DNA of 6,100 nucleotides from Propionibacteriaceae bacterium. Lineage in GTDB: Bacteria > Actinomycetota > Actinomycetes > Propionibacteriales > Propionibacteriaceae. Positions 1 to 6,100 of this stretch are shown piece by piece (position 1 is the stretch's first letter; every line of letters starts with the position of its first letter). Made by a program: the position numbers and the translations under genes. Under the pieces are notes generated by a model. That model was not told the origin of the DNA and made no database searches. It saw only the letters and a program-made list of their open reading frames with translations. Location: assembly GCA_027346035.1 (NCBI GenBank), contig DAIESZ010000045.1:1-6100 (forward strand), given 5' to 3'.

Positions 1-972
1 GCCTCGACCGTCGTCGAGCTCGACGGGGCCAGGTTCCTCGTCGACCCTGTCTTCGCCGACCGCGTCTTTCCCTCGCCCACTCGCGGACCGAAGCGGCTGC
101 ACCCGGTGCCCGGCCGCGTCGAGGACATCCCCACGGTCGACGCGGTGCTCATCTCGCACGACCACTACGACCACCTCGACTTCCCGACCATCATGCGGCT
201 CGAGCGCACCCACAAGCCGCGCTACGTCGTCCCCCTCGGCGTGAACTTCCACCTCATGGCATGGGGCGTGCCCCCCGAGCGGATCACCCCACTCGACTGG
301 CGAGAGGAGACCGACGTCGCCGGCGTCACGCTCACCTGCACCGAAGCGCGGCACAACTCCGGCCGCGGCCTCGTCGACAGCGTGACGCTGTGGTGCGGCT
401 GGGCGATGCGCGGGCCGCGGCACAGGGTGTTCTTCGCCGGCGACTCAGGCACGTCGAAGCGGTTCGCGAACATCGGCGCCGACCTCGGCCCGTTCGACCT
501 GACCATCCTGCCCGTCGGCGCCTACGACCAGTTCTGGCCGGACATCCACATGGACCCCGAGCAGGCCCTTGCCGCGCACCGCGACGTCAACCGCGTCGCT
601 GCCGACGCCGAGGCCCTCGTCGCCGACGCCGCCGGAGTCGCCGACGCCTTCCTGGAGGGCGACGCGCGCATCGACACCCCTGGTGGCACGCACGAGGAGG
701 GCGAGCCCACCACCCTCCACCGGACCACGATGACCCGAGCCGCCTCGTCGGTGCTGCTCCCGGTCCACTGGGCGACGTTCAACCTCGCCATGCACTGGTG
801 GTCCGAGCCGGTGCGGCGCCTGCGCCGGGCGGCCGCCGAGGCCGGGGTGCCGGTCGTCTACCCGAGGCCCGGGGAGCGGGTCGACGTCACAGCCGGTTCC
901 CCACAGGACGTGGCGGCCCGCTTCGCCCAGCCGTGGTGGGAGGCGTGCGCGGCTCCTGACGACCGCGACTGA
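1..972 (+). CDS. MBL-fold metallo-hydrolase, UlaG/NAPE-PLD-like (5' partial)
   Basis: The reading frame is open from base 1 to the TGA at 970-972, so the start lies before the window. The GTG at 106 is not the real start, because family-like sequence (VELDGARFLVDPVFADR, the first strands of the fold) lies upstream of it. Counting from base 1, the metal-binding signature HDHYDH gives His53, His55, Asp57 and His58. Further probable ligands or active-site residues are His118 (ARHNSG), Asp148 (AGDSG), His183 (DIHMDPEQA) and His256 (LLPVHW). This set fits the zinc-dependent hydrolases related to UlaG (ascorbate-6-phosphate lactonase) and NAPE-PLD. The substrate cannot be told. No signal peptide is visible in the part present. 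An Ala/Asp-rich stretch of about 50 residues (roughly 196-249) separates DIHMDPEQALAAHRD from LLPVHW, which as I recall are nearly adjacent in relatives. The gene converges on the glycosyltransferase operon and is probably unrelated to it. Fold confidence is high; function is unknown. Confidence 0.9.
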   Translation, partial: ASTVVELDGARFLVDPVFADRVFPSPTRGPKRLHPVPGRVEDIPTVDAVLISHDHYDHLDFPTIMRLERTHKPRYVVPLGVNFHLMAWGVPPERITPLDWREETDVAGVTLTCTEARHNSGRGLVDSVTLWCGWAMRGPRHRVFFAGDSGTSKRFANIGADLGPFDLTILPVGAYDQFWPDIHMDPEQALAAHRDVNRVAADAEALVADAAGVADAFLEGDARIDTPGGTHEEGEPTTLHRTTMTRAASSVLLPVHWATFNLAMHWWSEPVRRLRRAAAEAGVPVVYPRPGERVDVTAGSPQDVAARFAQPWWEACAAPDDRD

Positions 973-1003
973 CCCGGGGACGCCCCGCCACCGTCGGCCG
1001 CTT

Positions 1004-1022
1004 GGCGCCGGCACCCGGCGCC
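1004..1022. terminator. GC-rich hairpin between convergent genes, possible terminator
   Basis: A perfect inverted repeat: GGCGCCGG (1004-1011), a 3-base loop, then CCGGCGCC (1015-1022). It begins 31 bases after the stop of the metallo-hydrolase and sits at the far end of the flippase remnant, so it is downstream of both converging transcripts. There is no T-tract on either side, so it is not a classical intrinsic terminator. Terminators lacking a strong U-tract are often proposed in high-GC actinobacteria. The role is inferred from position only. Confidence 0.4.
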
Positions 1023-1256
1023 CGCGCACACCGAAGGTCCGCCTCCGGGCGGCCGCGGTGTTGGCCAGCGTGGCGACTACGAGCGACCGAGCGTTGGCGA
1101 GCTGGGCCGCCACGCCCGCACGGGCCAGCACCGCGACGAGCCCGAGGTGCAGCACGGTCGAGAGGACACCCACACCCCTGCGAAGCGCACGACGTCGCGA
1201 CGCAGCACCGCACCGGACGGCTGTACCTGACCAAGCTGCGTCGTCAGCGCACCCAT
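1018..1256 (-). pseudogene. GtrA-family flippase remnant, frameshifted and truncated
   Basis: On the minus strand an ATG at 1256-1254 follows the glycosyltransferase stop at once (TGAGATG). Its frame reads MGALTTQLGQVQPSGAV, then LRRDVVRFAGV. The similarity then continues in another frame from about 1173: GVLSTVLHLGLVAVLARAG, AAQLANARSLVVATLANTAA and TFGVRGR, ending near 1018. Joined, this is the first half of a GtrA-like membrane protein (RFxxVGxxST in segment 1, AxxxAxxANTAANRRxTF in segment 2). Removing 2 bases from the CACAC run near 1171-1176 restores the frame, so a GT duplication is the likely lesion. Unrepaired, the frame stops at TAG (1079-1077) after 59 codons. The last two membrane segments are absent, and the usual NRRW/F is altered to ARRR. 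GtrA proteins are thought to flip polyprenyl-phosphate sugars to the outer leaflet for GT-C enzymes such as the neighbour. A sequencing error could explain the frameshift but not the truncation. Confidence 0.72.
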
Positions 1257-1277
1257 CTCACACCGGCTTGGTCAGGT
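1225..1277 (-). repeat. 12-bp perfect inverted repeat spanning the GT39 stop / flippase start
   Basis: ACCTGACCAAGC at 1225-1236 is the exact reverse complement of GCTTGGTCAGGT at 1266-1277. In the minus-strand mRNA the first arm lies in the last codons of the glycosyltransferase (DLTKP) and the second arm in codons 7-11 of the flippase remnant. The 29-base loop holds the junction TGAGATG. The structure could tie translation of the second gene to arrival of ribosomes at the end of the first. There is no U-tract, so a terminator is less likely. Confidence 0.5.
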
Positions 1278-3294
1278 CGTAGAACGTCGAGCCCCCGAGG
1301 GTCACCGACGCGAAGCTCTCCTGCACCCAGGTGCTGATCTCGAAGGCGGCACTGCTCCCGCCCATCTGGCCCCCGGGCCCGCCGAAGCCGTCCCGCCCGC
1401 TGGCCGCGAAGTAGTGGATCTCACCGTTGGCCACGTCCTGCTGGAACTGCCCCAAGGTGGGGCTCGGATCCGATCCGTTGAAGCCGCCGATCGACATCAC
1501 CGGCAGCTGCGTGGCGATCTGCAGGCCCGCGGCGTTCTGCGAGCCGACCGCGGCCGCGACCCACCTGTAGGAGCCGGCATCGGCGCTGAGTGCGGCGACC
1601 ACCGCGGCGCTCGGTGTGTTCGCGTCGAGCAGGCCGCCAGCGCCTCCGCCGAAGCCGCCCGTCGGGCGCTGAGCCGAGGTCCCGGGGCCGAACGCGCCCC
1701 CGCCCAGCTGTCCAGGGGGCAGGACCTGGGCCGCGAACGCGCCCCGGCCGCCAGGCCCACCCATCGTTCCCCGGGTGCCCGCCGGTCCCGCCGTGACGAT
1801 CGAGCCGGTGTGGCCCACCGAGACCGTCGAGACGGTGTATGCCGCCGGGCCGGCGAGCGCCGCCACGAGCGCCGCGGCAGCCACCACGGGAACGGCCCGC
1901 AGGTCCATGGCCCGCACGAGCAGCAGCAGGACGGCCGCGGTGAGACCGAGGACGAGGACGGCATACCGGAGCGAGTCCCCGTAGGCGGTGGTCCCGGACA
2001 GGAGGACGAAGCCCCACACGGCGGCAGCGGCGGAGGCGACCGCGAGGGCCGCACCACCGAGGATCGTCTCGCGCTGCTCCCACGCCTCGGCCGCACCCAT
2101 CCCGACCAGCGCTCCGATGGCGGGGGCCAGAGCGACGGTGTAGTACTCGTGGAAGATCCCGGCCATGAGGGAGAAGACGAGCATCGTCACGACGAGCCAC
2201 CCGCCCCAGACGAGGTAGGCCGCCCGGCGGAGGTCGGTGCGCGGACGACGACCCCGAATGACGAGCCCCACGGCAAGCAGGATGAGCGCGCTCGGGATGA
2301 GCCACGACACCTGGTCGCCGACGCCCGAGGAGAACATCCGCAACAGCCCCGTCTCGCCCCAGCCCCGGCCGCCACCGACAGAGCCCGTCTCGTCACCGCT
2401 CAGCCGTCCGAACCCGTTGTAGCCGAAGGTCAGCTCGAGGAAAGAGTTGGTCTGGCTGCCGCCGATGTACGGCCGGGTGCTCGCCGGGACGAGCTCGACG
2501 ATCGCGACCCACCACCCCGCCGAGACGACGGCCGTACCGAGCGCCACGAGGGAGTGACCGATGCGGCGCCGCAGCGTCGTCGGCGCTGCGAGGAGGTAGG
2601 CAATGCCGAGGAACGGGATGACGAGCAGGACCTGCAAGGTCTTGGTGAGGAAGCCCAGCCCGACGAACGCCCCGACGAGGGCCATCCAGCGCGCGGAAGC
2701 AACCTCGATGGCGCGCATCATCGCCCACGTCGCGAGCGCCATCAGGAGGGTGAGGAGCGCGTTTGGGTTGTTGAAGCGGAACATCAGCGCCGCGACCGGG
2801 GTGAGGGCCACGACGGTCCCCGCGAGCAGACCCGCCCCCGCGCCGAACTGACGCCGGACCGTGGCGAAGACGACCGCCACCGTGGCCACGCCCATGAGAG
2901 CTTCCGGGAGCAGGATCGATAGGGAGCTCAGGCCCAGCAACCGCACCGACAGGCCCATGATCCAGAGCGCGGCCGGAGGCTTGTCCACGGTGATGGCGTT
3001 CGAGGCGTCGAAGCTGCCGAAGAAGAGGGCCTTCCAGCTCTCGCTACCGGCCTGAGCGGCCGCGGTGTAGAAGGAGTTCGCCCAGCCGCTGGCGGTGAGA
3101 TCCCAGACGTAGAGCAGCGACGTGGCGGCGAGCAGGGTCAGGAGCGCGGGGCGGGCCCAGGGTGCATCGGGGGCAGGCCCACGCCAGAATCGGGCCAGCC
3201 TGAGGCGCAGGGCATTTGGCTGGACCGACGACTCGGCAGCTGAGGTTTCGGTGGAAGCGCCGGTTGGGCCCGGCTGCAGAGCCATCGTGTCCAT
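1258..3294 (-). CDS. GT39/ArnT-like membrane glycosyltransferase, YkcB type
   Basis: A polytopic GT-C enzyme expected to move a sugar from a polyprenyl-phosphate carrier to an acceptor on the outer face of the membrane. The donor sugar and acceptor cannot be read from sequence. Numbering is from the ATG at 3294 (678 aa). Residues 1-46 are a polar cytoplasmic tail and membrane segment 1 is about 48-66. The loop after it has the subfamily motifs SGWANSFY, SWKALFFGSFD and ITVDKPP (Asp104, likely functional). Many hydrophobic segments follow to about residue 488, with FHEYYTVALAP near 381-391. A Gly-rich linker (about 505-556) leads to a C-terminal extracytoplasmic domain with MSIGGFNGSDP (about 600-610) and NGEIHYF, the hallmark of the Bacillus YkcB-type C-terminal domain. 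Start: the ATG at 3354 (698 aa) has no Shine-Dalgarno sequence and would place a regulator box inside the gene. The ATG at 3294 has GAGG nine bases upstream and is preferred. The gene is last intact in the operon, followed by the flippase remnant. Confidence 0.9.
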   Translation of the reverse strand: MDTMALQPGPTGASTETSAAESSVQPNALRLRLARFWRGPAPDAPWARPALLTLLAATSLLYVWDLTASGWANSFYTAAAQAGSESWKALFFGSFDASNAITVDKPPAALWIMGLSVRLLGLSSLSILLPEALMGVATVAVVFATVRRQFGAGAGLLAGTVVALTPVAALMFRFNNPNALLTLLMALATWAMMRAIEVASARWMALVGAFVGLGFLTKTLQVLLVIPFLGIAYLLAAPTTLRRRIGHSLVALGTAVVSAGWWVAIVELVPASTRPYIGGSQTNSFLELTFGYNGFGRLSGDETGSVGGGRGWGETGLLRMFSSGVGDQVSWLIPSALILLAVGLVIRGRRPRTDLRRAAYLVWGGWLVVTMLVFSLMAGIFHEYYTVALAPAIGALVGMGAAEAWEQRETILGGAALAVASAAAAVWGFVLLSGTTAYGDSLRYAVLVLGLTAAVLLLLVRAMDLRAVPVVAAAALVAALAGPAAYTVSTVSVGHTGSIVTAGPAGTRGTMGGPGGRGAFAAQVLPPGQLGGGAFGPGTSAQRPTGGFGGGAGGLLDANTPSAAVVAALSADAGSYRWVAAAVGSQNAAGLQIATQLPVMSIGGFNGSDPSPTLGQFQQDVANGEIHYFAASGRDGFGGPGGQMGGSSAAFEISTWVQESFASVTLGGSTFYDLTKPV

Positions 3295-3316
3295 GACGCT
3301 GAGCCTCGTGGCGCGC

Positions 3317-3334
3317 CCTGTGACCGACCTGTGC
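3317..3334 (+). promoter_or_regulatory. PhoP-type box upstream of the glycosyltransferase
   Basis: CCTGTGA-CCGA-CCTGTGC on the plus strand. Read toward the gene on the minus strand it is GCACAGG-N4-TCACAGG. The two 7-bp half-sites have a 4-bp spacer, an 11-bp period. The layout matches the known M. tuberculosis PhoP direct repeat (TCACAGC-N4-TCACAGC) and the two boxes upstream of the regulator gene in this window. It ends 22 bases before the preferred start at 3294 and lies 56 bases beyond the kinase stop. So close to the start, it could act as an operator or serve a promoter within the operon. No convincing -10 element is visible. Confidence 0.55.
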
Positions 3335-3389
3335 GACCTCTGAGGCACCGCCATGGGATCGGGTCAGGTAGTGGCGTGTGCAGTGGCGG

Positions 3390-4940
3390 TCAGGCAGTGC
3401 CGGGCAGCACGAGGGAGAAGGTCGTGTCACCCGGACGGCTGTCCAGCTCCACCCGGCCGCCGTGCGCCTTGGTCACGGCGGACACGATCGACAGCCCCAG
3501 GCCGGTGCTCCCGCCGGCGCGGCTGCGGGCGTCGTCGCCGCGGGCGAAGCGCTCGAAGACGTTGGCCCTCAGGCTCTCGGGGACGCCAGGACCGTCGTCG
3601 TGCACGGAGATGCGCACCGCCCCGCCCTCCGCACGAACCGAGGTCGTGACGCTCGTGCCCGCCGGGGTGTGCGTCCGGGCGTTCGCGAGCAGGTTGGCCA
3701 CGATCTGGTGCAGGCGCGCCCGGTCGCCGGTCACCTCGATCGGCTCTGCAGGCAGGTCGAGGCTCCAGGTGTGATCGGGCGCCGCGGCGTGCGCGTCGCT
3801 CACGGCGTCGACGACCAGCCTGGACAGGTCGACCGACGTCCGGTCGAGGGGGCGACCGGCATCGAGGCGGGCGAGGAGCAGCAGGTCCTCGACGAGCGCG
3901 GACATGCGGGCCGCCTCCGACTCGATCCGGTCCATCGCGTGGTTCACGGCGGCGGGGACGGGCTCGGGCTCGCGCCTCGACAGCTCGGCGTAGCCCTTGA
4001 TCGAGGCGAGCGGCGTCCGCAGCTCGTGCGAGGCGTCCGCGACGAACTGACGCACCCGCTGCTCGCTCTGGTGGCGCACGTTGAGCGCATCGTTGACGTG
4101 GTCGAGCATCTCGTTGAAGGCCGCGCCGACCTGACCGACCTCGGTGCTGCGGTCGGTGTACTGCACCGGGACGCGCTCGGCCAGCGCAACCTGCCCCGTG
4201 TGCAGGGGCAGCTGGGACACCTGCGTGGCGGTAGCGGCCACCCGCCGCAGCGGCGCGAGGTTGCGACGCACCAGCCACGTGCCGAGGCCGCCGACGAGCA
4301 GCACCCCAGCACCGACACCGGAGACGGCGAGAACGACCATCTGGGCGATGGTCTGGTCCTTCGGCGCCGTGGGGAGGCCGACGACATAGGTCACGACCGC
4401 GGGCGTTCCGTTGATCGCGACCGGCCACTCCCGACCCACGATCCGGTAGGACCCGATGTCTCCGCCAAGCCTCACGTCGGTGCCTTGGCGACTCGGCGCC
4501 GCCTTCGCGATCAGCTGCAGCTGGGTGCTCGTCAGCGGGACCCGCGAGTTGTTGGTGCTCCGCGTCGCCCAGCCACCCTCGAGCGAGCCGAGCACGGCGA
4601 CGAGGCCTTCGTTGCCCGGTCCGCGCCCACGGTCCTCCGCGTAGCTGCCGCCGTCGAGCTCGCCGCCTGGCCGGGGACCGCGATCCAGCGAGGTGAGCAG
4701 CTGCTTGTCCAGCTGCGCGGTGAGGTAGCGGTCGAGAGCGAGGATCGTCAGGGCGCTCGTGAGCAGGCTGAGGGCGGTGAAGAGCACGAGCATGGAGGCG
4801 ACCAGCTTCGTGCGCAGCGTCCACGAGCGGAACGGCTTGATGTGCTCCCCGACCCGCTCCGGCAGCCGCCCGAGCACGCGGGTCTGCAGCGGCGCCAGGG
4901 AGGACCCGGCGTGGGTCTCAGCCGGTGGGCTTGAGAACAT
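3390..4940 (-). CDS. HAMP sensor histidine kinase (PhoR/TrcS-like)
   Basis: A class I membrane sensor kinase of 516 aa. The cytoplasmic N-terminus is unusually long (about 45 residues). Membrane segment 1 is about 46-68, the extracytoplasmic sensor region about 70-198, and membrane segment 2 about 200-223. A HAMP linker (about 224-285) follows. The HisKA domain has SHELRTPL with the phospho-acceptor His305. The HATPase_c domain shows the N-box (QIVANLLANARTHTP, Asn416 and Asn420), the G1 box DDGPGVP (448-454), the F-box FERF (462-465) and the G2 box GSTGLGLSIV (477-486). All catalytic boxes are intact. The sensor region has no domain I recognise, so the signal is unknown. The gene starts inside the regulator gene with a 23-base overlap, implying translational coupling and a cognate pair. 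No clear Shine-Dalgarno sequence precedes the ATG; a GTG at codon 22 is an alternative start. Overall order and motifs resemble M. tuberculosis PhoR. Confidence 0.95.
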   Translation of the reverse strand: MFSSPPAETHAGSSLAPLQTRVLGRLPERVGEHIKPFRSWTLRTKLVASMLVLFTALSLLTSALTILALDRYLTAQLDKQLLTSLDRGPRPGGELDGGSYAEDRGRGPGNEGLVAVLGSLEGGWATRSTNNSRVPLTSTQLQLIAKAAPSRQGTDVRLGGDIGSYRIVGREWPVAINGTPAVVTYVVGLPTAPKDQTIAQMVVLAVSGVGAGVLLVGGLGTWLVRRNLAPLRRVAATATQVSQLPLHTGQVALAERVPVQYTDRSTEVGQVGAAFNEMLDHVNDALNVRHQSEQRVRQFVADASHELRTPLASIKGYAELSRREPEPVPAAVNHAMDRIESEAARMSALVEDLLLLARLDAGRPLDRTSVDLSRLVVDAVSDAHAAAPDHTWSLDLPAEPIEVTGDRARLHQIVANLLANARTHTPAGTSVTTSVRAEGGAVRISVHDDGPGVPESLRANVFERFARGDDARSRAGGSTGLGLSIVSAVTKAHGGRVELDSRPGDTTFSLVLPGTA

Positions 4941-5655
4941 AGCCGGCGCCCCGCATGGTGTGGATCATCGGCTCGCGCCCGACGTCGACCTTCTTTCGAA
5001 GGTACGAGATGTAGAGCTCGACGACGTTGGCCTGGCCGCCGAAGTCGTAGTTCCAGACGCGGTCGAGGATCTGGGCCTTGGACAACACCCGCTTGGGGTT
5101 GCGCATGAGGAAGCGAAGCAGCTCGAACTCCGTCGCGGTGAGGTGGATCTCCTCGCCGCCTCGGCGCACCTCGTGACTGTCCTCGTCGAGCGTGAGGTCG
5201 CCGACGACGAGCATGGAGTCCGCGTCGGAGACGGCGACGGTCGTGCGCCGCATGAGGGCGCGCACCCGGGCCACCACCTCCTCGAGGGAGAACGGCTTGG
5301 TCACGTAGTCATCGCCACCCGCGGTGAGGCCGGCGACCCGGTCCTCGACGGCGTCGCGCGCCGTGAGGAAGAGCACCGGGACGTTGGGATTGGTCGACCT
5401 CATCCGGCGCAGCACCTCGAGGCCGTCGAAGTCCGGGAGCATCATGTCGAGCACGACGGCGTCGGGGTCGAAGTCACGGGCGGCTCGCACCGCCTCCATC
5501 CCGCTCGCGGCCGACCGGACCTGCCAGCCCTCGTAGCGCAGCGCCATGCTGAGCAGCTCGGTGAGGTTGGGCTCGTCGTCGACGACGAGGACTCGCACGG
5601 GGGAGCCGTCGAGTCGCGCCAGCGCCGGCGGCGCAGCCTGGGTACGGTCCGTCAT
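4918..5655 (-). CDS. OmpR/PhoP-family response regulator
   Basis: A DNA-binding regulator of 245 aa. Residues 1-18 are a short tail. The receiver domain (about 20-135) has the acidic pair Asp26/Asp27 in VVDDE, phospho-acceptor Asp70 (VVLDMMLP), Thr98 (LFLTAR) and Lys120 (YVTKPF). A linker leads to a winged-helix Trans_reg_C domain (about 150-243) with TATEFELLRFLMRN, the recognition-helix region NVVELYISYLRKKVD and the wing HTMRGAGYVL. The stretches LFLTARD, GGDDYVTKPFSLEEVVAR, DRVWNYDFGG and SYLRKKVD closely resemble M. tuberculosis PhoP as I remember it. TrcR/TcrA-type regulators are related alternatives. Length is normal and no key residue is missing. The ATG at 5655 has no Shine-Dalgarno sequence, so the transcript may be leaderless or nearly so. 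The gene heads the operon with the kinase. PhoP-like boxes lie just upstream (5678-5770), which suggests autoregulation. Confidence 0.96.
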   Translation of the reverse strand: MTDRTQAAPPALARLDGSPVRVLVVDDEPNLTELLSMALRYEGWQVRSAASGMEAVRAARDFDPDAVVLDMMLPDFDGLEVLRRMRSTNPNVPVLFLTARDAVEDRVAGLTAGGDDYVTKPFSLEEVVARVRALMRRTTVAVSDADSMLVVGDLTLDEDSHEVRRGGEEIHLTATEFELLRFLMRNPKRVLSKAQILDRVWNYDFGGQANVVELYISYLRKKVDVGREPMIHTMRGAGYVLKPTG

Positions 5656-5677
5656 GCCATCAGTGAAGCCGAACGGG

Positions 5678-5732
5678 CTGTGCGGTCGCCAGTGGTTTCC
5701 TGTGCGAACCCTGTGAGACGCCCAGTGGCCCC
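5678..5732 (+). promoter_or_regulatory. Phased 11-bp repeat array with PhoP-type box, upstream of the regulator
   Basis: The core box at 5699-5716 is CCTGTGC-GAAC-CCTGTGA, two half-sites with a 4-bp spacer. Five units fall in exact 11-bp register: CTGTGCG at 5678, CCAGTGG at 5689, CTGTGCG at 5700, CTGTGAG at 5711 and CCAGTGG at 5722. The CCAGTGG units are degenerate but identical to each other. Eleven-base direct repeats are the normal target of OmpR/PhoB/PhoP-family dimers, and several in phase suggest cooperative binding of two dimers. The array is 23-77 bases upstream of the regulator ATG, where binding could activate or repress that gene. Confidence 0.6.
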
Positions 5733-5752
5733 CTAGCCTCTCGACACCGCCG

Positions 5753-5770
5753 GCACAGGCTCGTCACAGC
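5753..5770 (-). promoter_or_regulatory. Second PhoP-type box in the divergent region, opposite orientation
   Basis: GCACAGG-CTCG-TCACAGC on the plus strand (GCTGTGA-N4-CCTGTGC on the minus strand). One half-site is exactly the TCACAGC heptamer reported for M. tuberculosis PhoP. It lies 52 bases before the plus-strand start at 5823, on that gene's side of the spacer, and is inverted relative to the 5699-5716 box. A lone CTGTGGA at 5784 may be a further half-site. The box probably serves the divergent gene, the regulator operon, or both. Confidence 0.55.
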
Positions 5771-5811
5771 ATCCACGCCGAGCCTGTGGACGAGAGATGT
5801 CCCCCGCACAC

Positions 5812-5817
5812 GAGGAG
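5812..5817 (+). promoter_or_regulatory. Shine-Dalgarno sequence of the divergent gene
   Basis: GAGGAG followed by a 5-base spacer and the ATG at 5823. It is the clearest ribosome-binding site in the window. It fixes the start of a gene that has no recognisable domain in the part visible, and argues against the other-frame ATG at 5797. Confidence 0.75.
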
Positions 5818-5822
5818 CGGCC

Positions 5823-6100
5823 ATGTCGTCCACCCCGGACCGCACACCGGAGCCCAGCCCGGACACCAGCCCGGACACCACCGCCCCGCTCGAGCCGGCC
5901 CGGCCCGATGCCGATCCGGCGGGGTCGAGCGCCGACACCACCCCGCTTCCAGCGGGCCCGGCGCGCGGCCCGATCGAGACGCTGTATGCCGCCCCGGGGG
6001 CACCGCCACCCTCAGAGGCACCCCCTGCTTCCGACGCCGTGACACCCGTCGGCTTCGCCGCAGCGCCCCTGTCCCCCCGTCGCTGGTCGGCCCGCCGCAC
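5823..6100 (+). CDS. Protein with Pro-rich N-terminal tail, function unknown (3' partial)
   Basis: The frame is open from the ATG at 5823 to the window end (92 full codons). Support comes from the GAGGAG site 5 bases upstream, strong G/C bias at third codon positions, and a divergent position with regulator boxes in front. The visible part is a low-complexity, probably disordered tail rich in Pro, Ala, Asp, Ser and Thr, with no Lys or Cys (MSSTPDRTPEPSPDT at the start). It turns basic at the window end (SPRRWSARR, residues 84-92). That pattern is typical of a cytoplasmic tail before a first membrane segment. Candidates are a second GT39 enzyme, a polyprenol-phosphate-sugar synthase, an HtrA-like anchored protease or another membrane protein; none can be chosen from this sequence. 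The regulator may control it through the boxes at 5699-5716 and 5753-5770. Confidence 0.7.
   Translation, partial: MSSTPDRTPEPSPDTSPDTTAPLEPARPDADPAGSSADTTPLPAGPARGPIETLYAAPGAPPPSEAPPASDAVTPVGFAAAPLSPRRWSARR
5856..5879 (+). repeat. Two tandem copies of a 12-bp unit in the Pro-rich tail
   Basis: AGCCCGGACACC occurs twice head to tail (5856-5867 and 5868-5879), encoding SPDT-SPDT. It looks like an in-frame slippage duplication in a disordered segment, so copy number may vary between strains. Confidence 0.8.

What the first reader, a model, noticed from the sequence alone, without database searches (positions are those of the whole stretch)
5678..5770. Divergent control region with 11-bp-phased PhoP-type direct repeats on both strands
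Seen: two boxes of two CTGTG-type heptamers with an exact 4-bp spacer (5699-5716 plus, 5753-5770 minus). The first sits in a five-unit array in 11-bp register (5678, 5689, 5700, 5711, 5722). Known: M. tuberculosis PhoP binds TCACAGC-N4-TCACAGC, and the adjacent regulator strongly resembles PhoP. Inferred: the regulator binds here, controls itself and the divergent gene, and the recognition code is conserved well beyond mycobacteria.
Basis: partly seen in the sequence, partly recalled or inferred. Interest (0 to 1): 0.75.

Follow-up and report, generated by a model that had tools for sequence, protein, structure and literature searches.

The report
Eleven-base ruler for envelope-stress promoters
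Evenly spaced DNA repeats in front of a bacterial regulator gene recur in front of its relatives, and of neighbouring and distant genes with predicted cell-envelope roles, in many actinobacteria; they are likely the landing sites of that regulator, which is predicted to switch these genes on together.

Summary
The two boxes are real, and a third (3317-3334) precedes a YkcB-type glycosyltransferase gene: three strict boxes where 0.003 are expected.

CACAG-N6-CACAG, sense to the gene, lies within 200 bp of 38 of 51 non-Streptomyces regulator orthologues (0 of 29 Streptomyces, which have a variant array), at an 11-bp period. It also precedes the neighbouring glycosyltransferase operon in 34 of 44 loci, and 14 of 23 MsrQ-like, 9 of 30 SigE-like and 7 of 30 HtrA-type genes. 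An ATG follows the pair at 22-23 or 44-45 nt in 37 and 84 of 243 boxes (null about 9 each). This suggests leaderless promoters with the box over -35.

Corrections: the regulator is not the PhoP orthologue but a sister subfamily, and the contig is probably a Terrabacter-like contaminant in the assembly.

Raw genome-wide counts are not enriched in 13 named genomes (89 against 80 control hits); the evidence is position and conservation. Binding, activation and signal are untested.

The parts
5710..5716 (-). array unit 1, TCACAGG (upstream unit of the regulator's own box)
   Evidence: sequence
5699..5705 (-). array unit 2, GCACAGG, 4 bp from unit 1; 44 nt between its CACAG and the regulator's ATG
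   Evidence: sequence; distance counted from coordinates
5688..5694 (-). register position 3, weak unit (ACTGG), same in Terrabacter sp. Root85
5677..5683 (-). register position 4, GCACAGC; 22 nt between its CACAG and the regulator's ATG
   Evidence: distance counted from coordinates
5662..5667 (-). predicted -10 element TTCACT if transcription starts at the ATG (leaderless); inferred
   Evidence: sequence; columns A -12/-11, T -8/-7
5753..5770 (+). box of the divergent gene, GCACAGG-N4-TCACAGC
   Evidence: matching box in Terrabacter L023:5883
3317..3334 (-). box of the YkcB-type glycosyltransferase gene, GCACAGG-N4-TCACAGG, 23 nt before the ATG at 3294
4918..5655 (-). OmpR/PhoB-family response regulator, 245 aa (sister subfamily of M. 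tuberculosis PhoP)
3390..4940 (-). sensor histidine kinase, 516 aa (HAMP, HisKA, HATPase_c)
1258..3294 (-). GT39/YkcB-type glycosyltransferase (PMT_2, YkcB_C); start taken at 3294
   Evidence: relatives
5823..6100 (+). divergent ORF, cut by the contig end; by position and look the N-terminal part of a low-complexity, membrane-anchored protein like that of Terrabacter
   Evidence: contig is 6100 bases; Terrabacter counterpart L023:5093-5860 by eye; blastn shows no nucleotide match there

Best explanation
The repeats are likely an operator array on which the neighbouring OmpR-family response regulator would sit as head-to-tail dimers, and it is predicted to activate its own operon, the downstream YkcB-type glycosyltransferase gene and the divergent gene from here. 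Shown by sequence: paired CACAG units at an 11-bp period, sense to each gene, recur before orthologues of the regulator and before the glycosyltransferase operon across several actinobacterial families, and before a share of the MsrQ-like (flavin electron-transfer), SigE-like and HtrA-type genes of related genomes. Shown: an ATG follows the pair at 22-23 or 44-45 nt far more often than random rotation gives. Inferred: transcripts are leaderless, the promoter-proximal pair covers the -35 position about 11 bp from the -10, and the regulator would activate from a PhoB-like (class II) position, with four-unit arrays holding two dimers. Inferred: the system answers damage or redox stress outside the cytoplasm. 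The signal is unknown. The regulator belongs to a subfamily beside PhoP, not to PhoP proper.
For: Box before the regulator in 38 of 51 non-Streptomyces orthologue loci; gaps 6, 17 and 28 in 38, 19 and 7 loci, every other gap from 0 to 29 in 3 or fewer; background 43 hits on both strands in 911,394 bp. Streptomyces regulator promoters carry a variant array (CTCAG-N28-CTCAG, 33 bp, in 20 of 29). Box before the GT2/GT39 operon in 34 of 44 loci, 21 of 24 in the Streptomyces group. MsrQ-like genes 14 of 23 upstream and 0 of 23 downstream; SigE-like 9 of 30 and HtrA-type 7 of 30, downstream 0 of 30 each. MsrQ-like box in 14 of 18 genomes with a regulator of at least 63% identity and 0 of 5 without (Fisher p 0.004; cut set after looking, the five are one genus). 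In six genomes of one family a 58-66% identical regulator with the helix NVVELYISYLRRK lies divergently beside the MsrQ-like gene with boxes between. Hits intergenic 44 of 47 against 12 of 30 for control hits; sense start within 250 bp 39 of 47 against 6 of 30. ATG at 22-23 nt in 37 and at 44-45 nt in 84 of 243 boxes, null means 9.4 and 9.3, maxima 20 and 21 in 2000 rotations. Recognition helix keeps 5 of 6 PhoP contact residues.
Against: No binding or expression data. Pattern counts are 89 against 80 for the reversed control over 13 named genomes, so the bare pattern does not define a regulon there. 13 of 51 non-Streptomyces loci and all 29 Streptomyces-group loci lack the exact pair before the regulator; 10 of 44 glycosyltransferase operons lack it, both Terrabacter loci included; 9 of 23 MsrQ-like, 21 of 30 SigE-like and 23 of 30 HtrA-type genes lack it. 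A PhoP-proper regulator coexists in three genomes, and an MprA-like regulator with a related helix (NSLEVYIGYVRRK, contig C272) is in the assembly; either might share sites. Smaller ATG peaks exist too (9 nt: 15; 36 nt: 11; 33 nt: 10), and many of the 84 are homologous promoters. In the window the divergent gene's ATG is 53 nt from its box. Gene starts come from a crude codon-usage caller.
Confidence: 0.72

Rival explanations
1. The boxes are read mainly by the PhoP-proper regulator that coexists in some of these genomes, or by both paralogues in cross-talk.
For: Terrabacter, Phycicoccus and Micromonospora each encode a regulator closer to M. tuberculosis PhoP, and M. tuberculosis PhoP reads TCACAGC-N4-TCACAGC (passages of PMC4832192).
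Against: The array stands before the window-type regulator gene itself and its neighbouring operon. The three PhoP-proper genes lack a CACA-N7-CACA pair in 260 bp upstream; by eye Terrabacter has TCCCAGC-N4-TCCCAGC and Phycicoccus GCACAGG-N4-GTCCAGC-N4-TCCCAGG, and both have Gly where PhoP has the contact residue Asn212. In 6 of 9 genomes no closer PhoP relative was found.
Confidence: 0.12
2. The boxes belong to another factor: an MprA-like or MtrA-like regulator, or a CRP-type protein.
For: SigE, HtrA and self-control are MprA targets in Corynebacterium (passages of PMC12113857). The assembly has a 50% identical regulator (C272) with the related helix NSLEVYIGYVRRK, and regulators of about that identity lie within 5 kb of an HtrA-type gene in at least 19 of 57 genomes (by eye). 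MtrA of Corynebacterium also binds direct repeats at 11 bp (passages of PMC3353115).
Against: The published Corynebacterium motifs of MtrA (RTAACAAT repeats) and MprA (TKTTAAGAAM) do not contain CACAG; CRP sites are inverted (recalled), these are direct. Of the HtrA-type genes beside such an MprA-like regulator that were examined, 1 of 17 has the box. The window-type regulator and its operon carry the box, and box presence before the MsrQ-like gene follows presence of that regulator (14 of 18 v 0 of 5).
Confidence: 0.1
3. Binding by this regulator is right, but it mostly represses, or the fixed spacing reflects something other than leaderless class II activation.
For: Sites over about -39 to -24 can also block polymerase; no transcript data were available.
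Against: The pair keeps one or two fixed helical steps from the ATG in several gene families, and the -10-like columns are weak, as expected when a regulator replaces the -35.
Confidence: 0.2
4. Chance repeats in GC-rich DNA.
For: Raw counts in the 13 named genomes are near the reversed control.
Against: as above.
Confidence: 0.01

Closest known systems
Mycobacterium tuberculosis PhoP and its TCACAGC-N4-TCACAGC site
   Same: Same spacing, nearly the same heptamer, 5 of 6 base-contacting residues; self-control by direct repeats (Gupta et al. 2006, seen only as a reference title).
   Different: Not the orthologue; Ser216 is Leu; the regulon inferred here centres on envelope glycosylation, SigE-like/HtrA-type and flavin redox genes.
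Corynebacterium glutamicum PhoR, best site CCTGTGAA-aat-CCTGTGAA
   Same: Same CACAG core at 11 bp, tandem, auto-regulated (passages of PMC3353115). So the core code was already known outside mycobacteria.
   Different: Phosphate-starvation regulon; orthology to the window regulator not tested.
MprAB-SigE-HtrA(PepD) envelope-stress circuit
   Same: SigE, an HtrA-type protease and self-control in one circuit (passages of PMC12113857).
   Different: Motif TKTTAAGAAM in C. glutamicum, no CACAG; a separate MprA-like regulator is present in the assembly; no M. tuberculosis MprA sequence was compared.
CutRS/CssRS secretion-stress systems of Streptomyces
   Same: Two-component control of HtrA-family genes (passages of PMC12802291).
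   Different: CutR site TAWATAAA; in the passages read its targets do not include the glycosyltransferase or MsrQ-like genes.
MsrQ-like flavinylation clusters of Actinobacteria
   Same: PF01794 with PF00175, FMN_bind and ApbE (C204), or PF01794 with ApbE and a NuoF-like PF10589 protein (C358), as described there (passages of PMC8238504).
   Different: No regulator of these clusters was named in the passages read.

Membership tests
OmpR/PhoB-family response regulator | Response_reg plus Trans_reg_C domains | tested here: met
   none of the 25 NCBIfam families shown reached its curated cut-off
PhoP (M. tuberculosis) orthologue | closest relative of PhoP in its genome; groups with PhoP in a tree | tested here: not met
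   A closer regulator exists in 3 of 9 genomes searched, Terrabacter included; separate groups 97/92 and 98/99 (PhoP row on a long branch). In the assembly itself C112 (56%) and C105 (55%) are the best hits.
PhoP (M. tuberculosis) orthologue | base-contacting residues N212 V213 E215 S216 Y217 Y220 | tested here: inconclusive
   5 of 6 identical, S216 is Leu
PhoP-type operator | two NCACAGN heptamers, direct, exactly 4 bp apart | tested here: met
PhoP-type operator | bound by the regulator | not testable with these tools
   no wet assay
Streptomyces PhoP PHO box | GTTCACC-N4-GTTCACC | tested here: not met
   by reading the boxes; consensus as quoted in PMC4832192
MprA-type operator | C. glutamicum MprA motif TKTTAAGAAM | tested here: not met
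   motif; not in the boxes, by reading
MsrQ-like flavinylation cluster (target operon) | PF01794 gene beside an FMN_bind or ApbE gene | tested here: met
   C204 and C358 loci; in C188 only PF01794 was found by model, the ApbE-like gene by eye
leaderless class II promoter | transcription start at the ATG, activator over -35 | not tested
   inferred from spacing and -10-like columns only

The most novel reading that the evidence does not exclude
An actinobacteria-wide two-component system, sister to PhoPR and without a name in the papers I could search, runs one envelope programme (polyprenyl-linked glycosylation, SigE, HtrA, flavin-based electron transfer outside the cytoplasm) through a promoter ruler: two or four 11-bp units ending exactly 22-23 nt before a leaderless AUG, so that its regulon can be read from sequence alone.
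Probability: 0.5. Interest if true: 0.75.

Novelty: new variant of a known kind. Interest (0 to 1): 0.55.

Why it matters
If right, a common actinobacterial two-component system (a regulator of at least 71% identity in 35 of 57 related genomes) gets a predicted binding code, a fixed promoter geometry and a regulon. I found no name for it in ten searches, but its Streptomyces coelicolor locus was not identified, so one may exist. It would link the MsrQ-like flavinylation clusters, whose role is open, to SigE/HtrA envelope stress and to a YkcB-type glycosylation operon. It also offers a natural pair (this subfamily and PhoP proper) for asking how paralogous regulators keep their sites apart.

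Tried and rejected
Genome-wide counting as proof of a regulon: rejected as the main evidence. 13 named genomes gave 89 pattern hits against 80 reversed-control hits; ten relatives gave 65 against 24 and the assembly 15 against 2.

Taking the assembly as one organism: rejected. Of 12 box-bearing contigs the window and C204 alone resemble Terrabacter in tetranucleotides more than the assembly's background; of 18 usable background contigs 17 are nearer their own assembly and one is level. The Terrabacter reference contains homologous loci, which favours it somewhat. The assembly's own regulator locus is C112, 99.6% identical to the only close orthologue found in a congener, and groups with Tessaracoccus and Propionicimonas, while the window regulator groups with Terrabacter. 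The assembly's 15 hits therefore probably mix two organisms.

PhoP orthology: rejected. MtrA, MprA, CRP: see rivals. The first test of the YkcB start by extrapolation found boxes in 9 of 44 loci, because in Streptomyces a GT2 gene comes first; repeated with GT2 included. The recognition-helix pattern matched nothing in the orthologues and was redone. The distance lines for the window are wrong through a script slip; the distances given here are counted from coordinates. A search for a paper on PhoP-dependent transcription complexes listed two papers on other regulators. Searches for prior reports; none of the listings shows this arrangement; subscription papers are mostly not held.

Rows dropped: two of 20 background stretches that read N; the hits of G014 (three loci in hand), three of 15 hits of G015, one of 7 of Pedococcus, and six of 36 control hits without loci; boxes with under 86 nt in hand and loci that repeat others; seven distant reductase matches (L181-L187), none of which had a box. 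SigE-like and HtrA-type genes were examined only in the 30 best loci of each search. The split into 51 and 29 loci was made after seeing that Streptomyces differs.

Full report
What is there. The window is one whole contig (C105, 6100 bases) of a fragmented 2.43-Mb assembly. It encodes, on the minus strand, a response regulator (4918-5655), a histidine kinase (3390-4940) and a YkcB-type GT39 glycosyltransferase (1258-3294); on the plus strand, the end of a metallo-beta-lactamase-fold gene (1-972) and the start of a divergent ORF (5823 to the contig end). The two reported boxes are exact, and a third lies at 3317-3334 before the glycosyltransferase. Against 0.0027 expected strict boxes the window has three. 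Of the five claimed array units three are CTGTG (5678, 5700, 5711); the positions at 5689 and 5722 are weak.

Conservation before the regulator. One search kept the best 80 of 586 named loci that encode a relative (73-88% best-segment identity). A strict box lies within 450 bp upstream (or the first 60 bp) in 16 of 80, a looser or strict one in 38 of 80. Within 200 bp upstream and sense to the gene, CACAG-N6-CACAG occurs in 38 of 51 non-Streptomyces loci and 0 of 29 Streptomyces-group loci. Among gaps 0 to 29 only 6, 17 and 28 stand out (38, 19, 7 loci; every other gap 3 or fewer), that is 11, 22 and 33 bp. Background in the same loci is 43 hits, both strands, in 911,394 bp. The antisense pair, towards a divergent gene, occurs in 10 of 80. 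Streptomyces promoters instead show a near-constant TTCTCAGGGAAATCACAG...TCTCAG stretch, with CTCAG-N28-CTCAG (33 bp) in 20 of 29, although their recognition helix is the same NVVELYISYLR.

The glycosyltransferase operon. In 44 of the 80 loci a GT2 or GT39/YkcB homologue follows within reach; 34 have a box at or before the extrapolated start of the first of these genes (13 of 20 non-Streptomyces, 21 of 24 Streptomyces-group), 22 of them at 62 or 40 nt before it. The two Terrabacter loci are among the ten without.

Wider targets. In the assembly 15 hits of CACAGS-N5-CACAGS were found against 2 for the reversed pattern; 14 are intergenic, one (C267) is in a gene. Downstream genes include the regulator paralogue of C112 with its kinase and a PMT_2 gene, an HtrA-type protease with PDZ domain, an ECF sigma factor (SigE-like by its neighbours, by eye), an HlyD-like/MacB exporter, an AhpC/TSA protein, a weakly SHOCT-like protein, and three loci with a Ferric_reduct gene; ApbE was detected by model in two of these (C204, C358; by eye in C188) and FMN_bind in C204. 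In Terrabacter all seven hits are intergenic with a sense gene starting within 108 bp: the regulator, the divergent gene, a sigma factor, a 279-aa ORF, a small ORF followed by ApbE-like, reductase-like and NuoF-like ORFs, a reductase operon (71% identical to C204's), and a phosphatase-like gene followed by thioredoxin-like, CcdA-like and ResB-like ORFs (several names by eye). Over five genomes 44 of 47 hits are intergenic (32 of 35 without the regulator loci) and 39 of 47 have a sense start within 250 bp, against 12 of 30 and 6 of 30 for control hits; in other relatives 20 of 24 are intergenic and 11 of 24 have such a start. From searches of 57 related genomes the box lies within 450 bp upstream of 14 of 23 MsrQ-like genes, 9 of 30 SigE-like and 7 of 30 HtrA-type genes examined, and downstream of none. 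The nine SigE-like cases are all in the assembly's own family, none of 14 in the other three families. For the MsrQ-like gene the box is present in 14 of 18 genomes with a regulator of at least 63% identity and in 0 of 5 without; the cut was set after looking and the five are one genus, so this is weak as a test. In six genomes of one family a regulator with the same helix is encoded divergently beside the MsrQ-like gene.

Geometry. Among 243 different boxes in hand an ATG begins 22-23 nt after the second CACAG in 37 and 44-45 nt in 84; random rotation gives means of 9.4 and 9.3 with maxima of 20 and 21 in 2000 rounds. Lesser peaks are at 9 nt (15), 36 nt (11) and 33 nt (10). Many of the 84 are homologous promoters (regulator, Streptomyces GT2), but the 37 span several gene families. 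Aligned on the ATG, both classes show A at -12/-11, T at -8/-7 and C at -1 (0.89 and 0.90), which reads as a -10 element for a start at the ATG. The pair would then cover about -39 to -24. From this I infer leaderless, class II promoters like those of PhoB (PhoB geometry recalled). In the window the regulator follows the rule (44 nt from unit 2, 22 nt from unit 4) and so does the glycosyltransferase (23 nt); the divergent gene does not (53 nt; an AGGAG lies before its ATG, by eye).

Identity. The regulator's best solved match is M. tuberculosis PhoP, but PhoP has closer relatives in Terrabacter, Phycicoccus and Micromonospora, 3 of 9 genomes searched, and the tree separates the two groups (the PhoP row has a long branch). 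The window regulator groups with Terrabacter (98/87). Contig composition (0.942 with Terrabacter, 0.886 with the assembly; 17 of 18 usable background contigs lean the other way, one is level) and a second, congener-like regulator locus in the assembly suggest that the contig is misplaced. C204 leans to Terrabacter in the same way (0.887 v 0.780). The Terrabacter reference holds homologous loci, which favours this result somewhat.

Known and new. The CACAG core at 11 bp is known for M. tuberculosis PhoP (PMC4832192, passages) and, in substance, for C. glutamicum PhoR (PMC3353115, passages). Not seen in my ten searches are the sister subfamily with the same code across several families, the fixed distance to the start codon, and the predicted envelope and flavin-redox regulon. 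MsrQ-like clusters with PF00175 or a NuoF-like protein are described as broadly conserved in Actinobacteria (PMC8238504, passages).

Noticed in passing
window 1-6100 (G000:C105): The contig is probably from a Terrabacter-like Intrasporangiaceae and misplaced in an assembly whose own regulator groups with Tessaracoccus and Propionicimonas.
   Followed up: yes
L378, L382 (PhoP-proper genes of Phycicoccus and Terrabacter): Their promoters carry TCCCAGC/GTCCAGC-like units at 11 bp, and the regulators have Gly where PhoP has the contact residue Asn212; Micromonospora (L377) keeps Asn and a TCACAGC unit. Possible code shift, three cases only, units by eye.
   Followed up: partly
Streptomyces-group loci among L038-L102, within 200 bp before the regulator: Near-invariant TTCTCAGGGAAATCACAG...TCTCAG stretch, an 11-bp array of degenerate units.
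   Followed up: partly
L169, L172, L173, L174, L175, L177: A 58-66% identical regulator encoded divergently beside the MsrQ-like gene with boxes between them.
   Followed up: partly
L010 (G000:C272) and relatives: An MprA-like regulator (50% identical, helix NSLEVYIGYVRRK); regulators of about this identity lie within 5 kb of an HtrA-type gene in at least 19 of 57 genomes, by eye.
   Followed up: partly
L290:1-3753 (Terrabacter): Box before a phosphatase-like/thioredoxin-like/CcdA-like/ResB-like gene row, suggesting cytochrome c maturation in the regulon; names by eye.
   Followed up: no
window about 973-1257, minus strand: Remnant similar to the GtrA-like ORF that follows YkcB in Terrabacter (blastn match; resemblance by eye).
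   Followed up: no
L285:2609-3226 (G015:C33): Box 22 nt before the ATG of a predicted multi-pass membrane protein that looks like a rhomboid protease (by eye).
   Followed up: no
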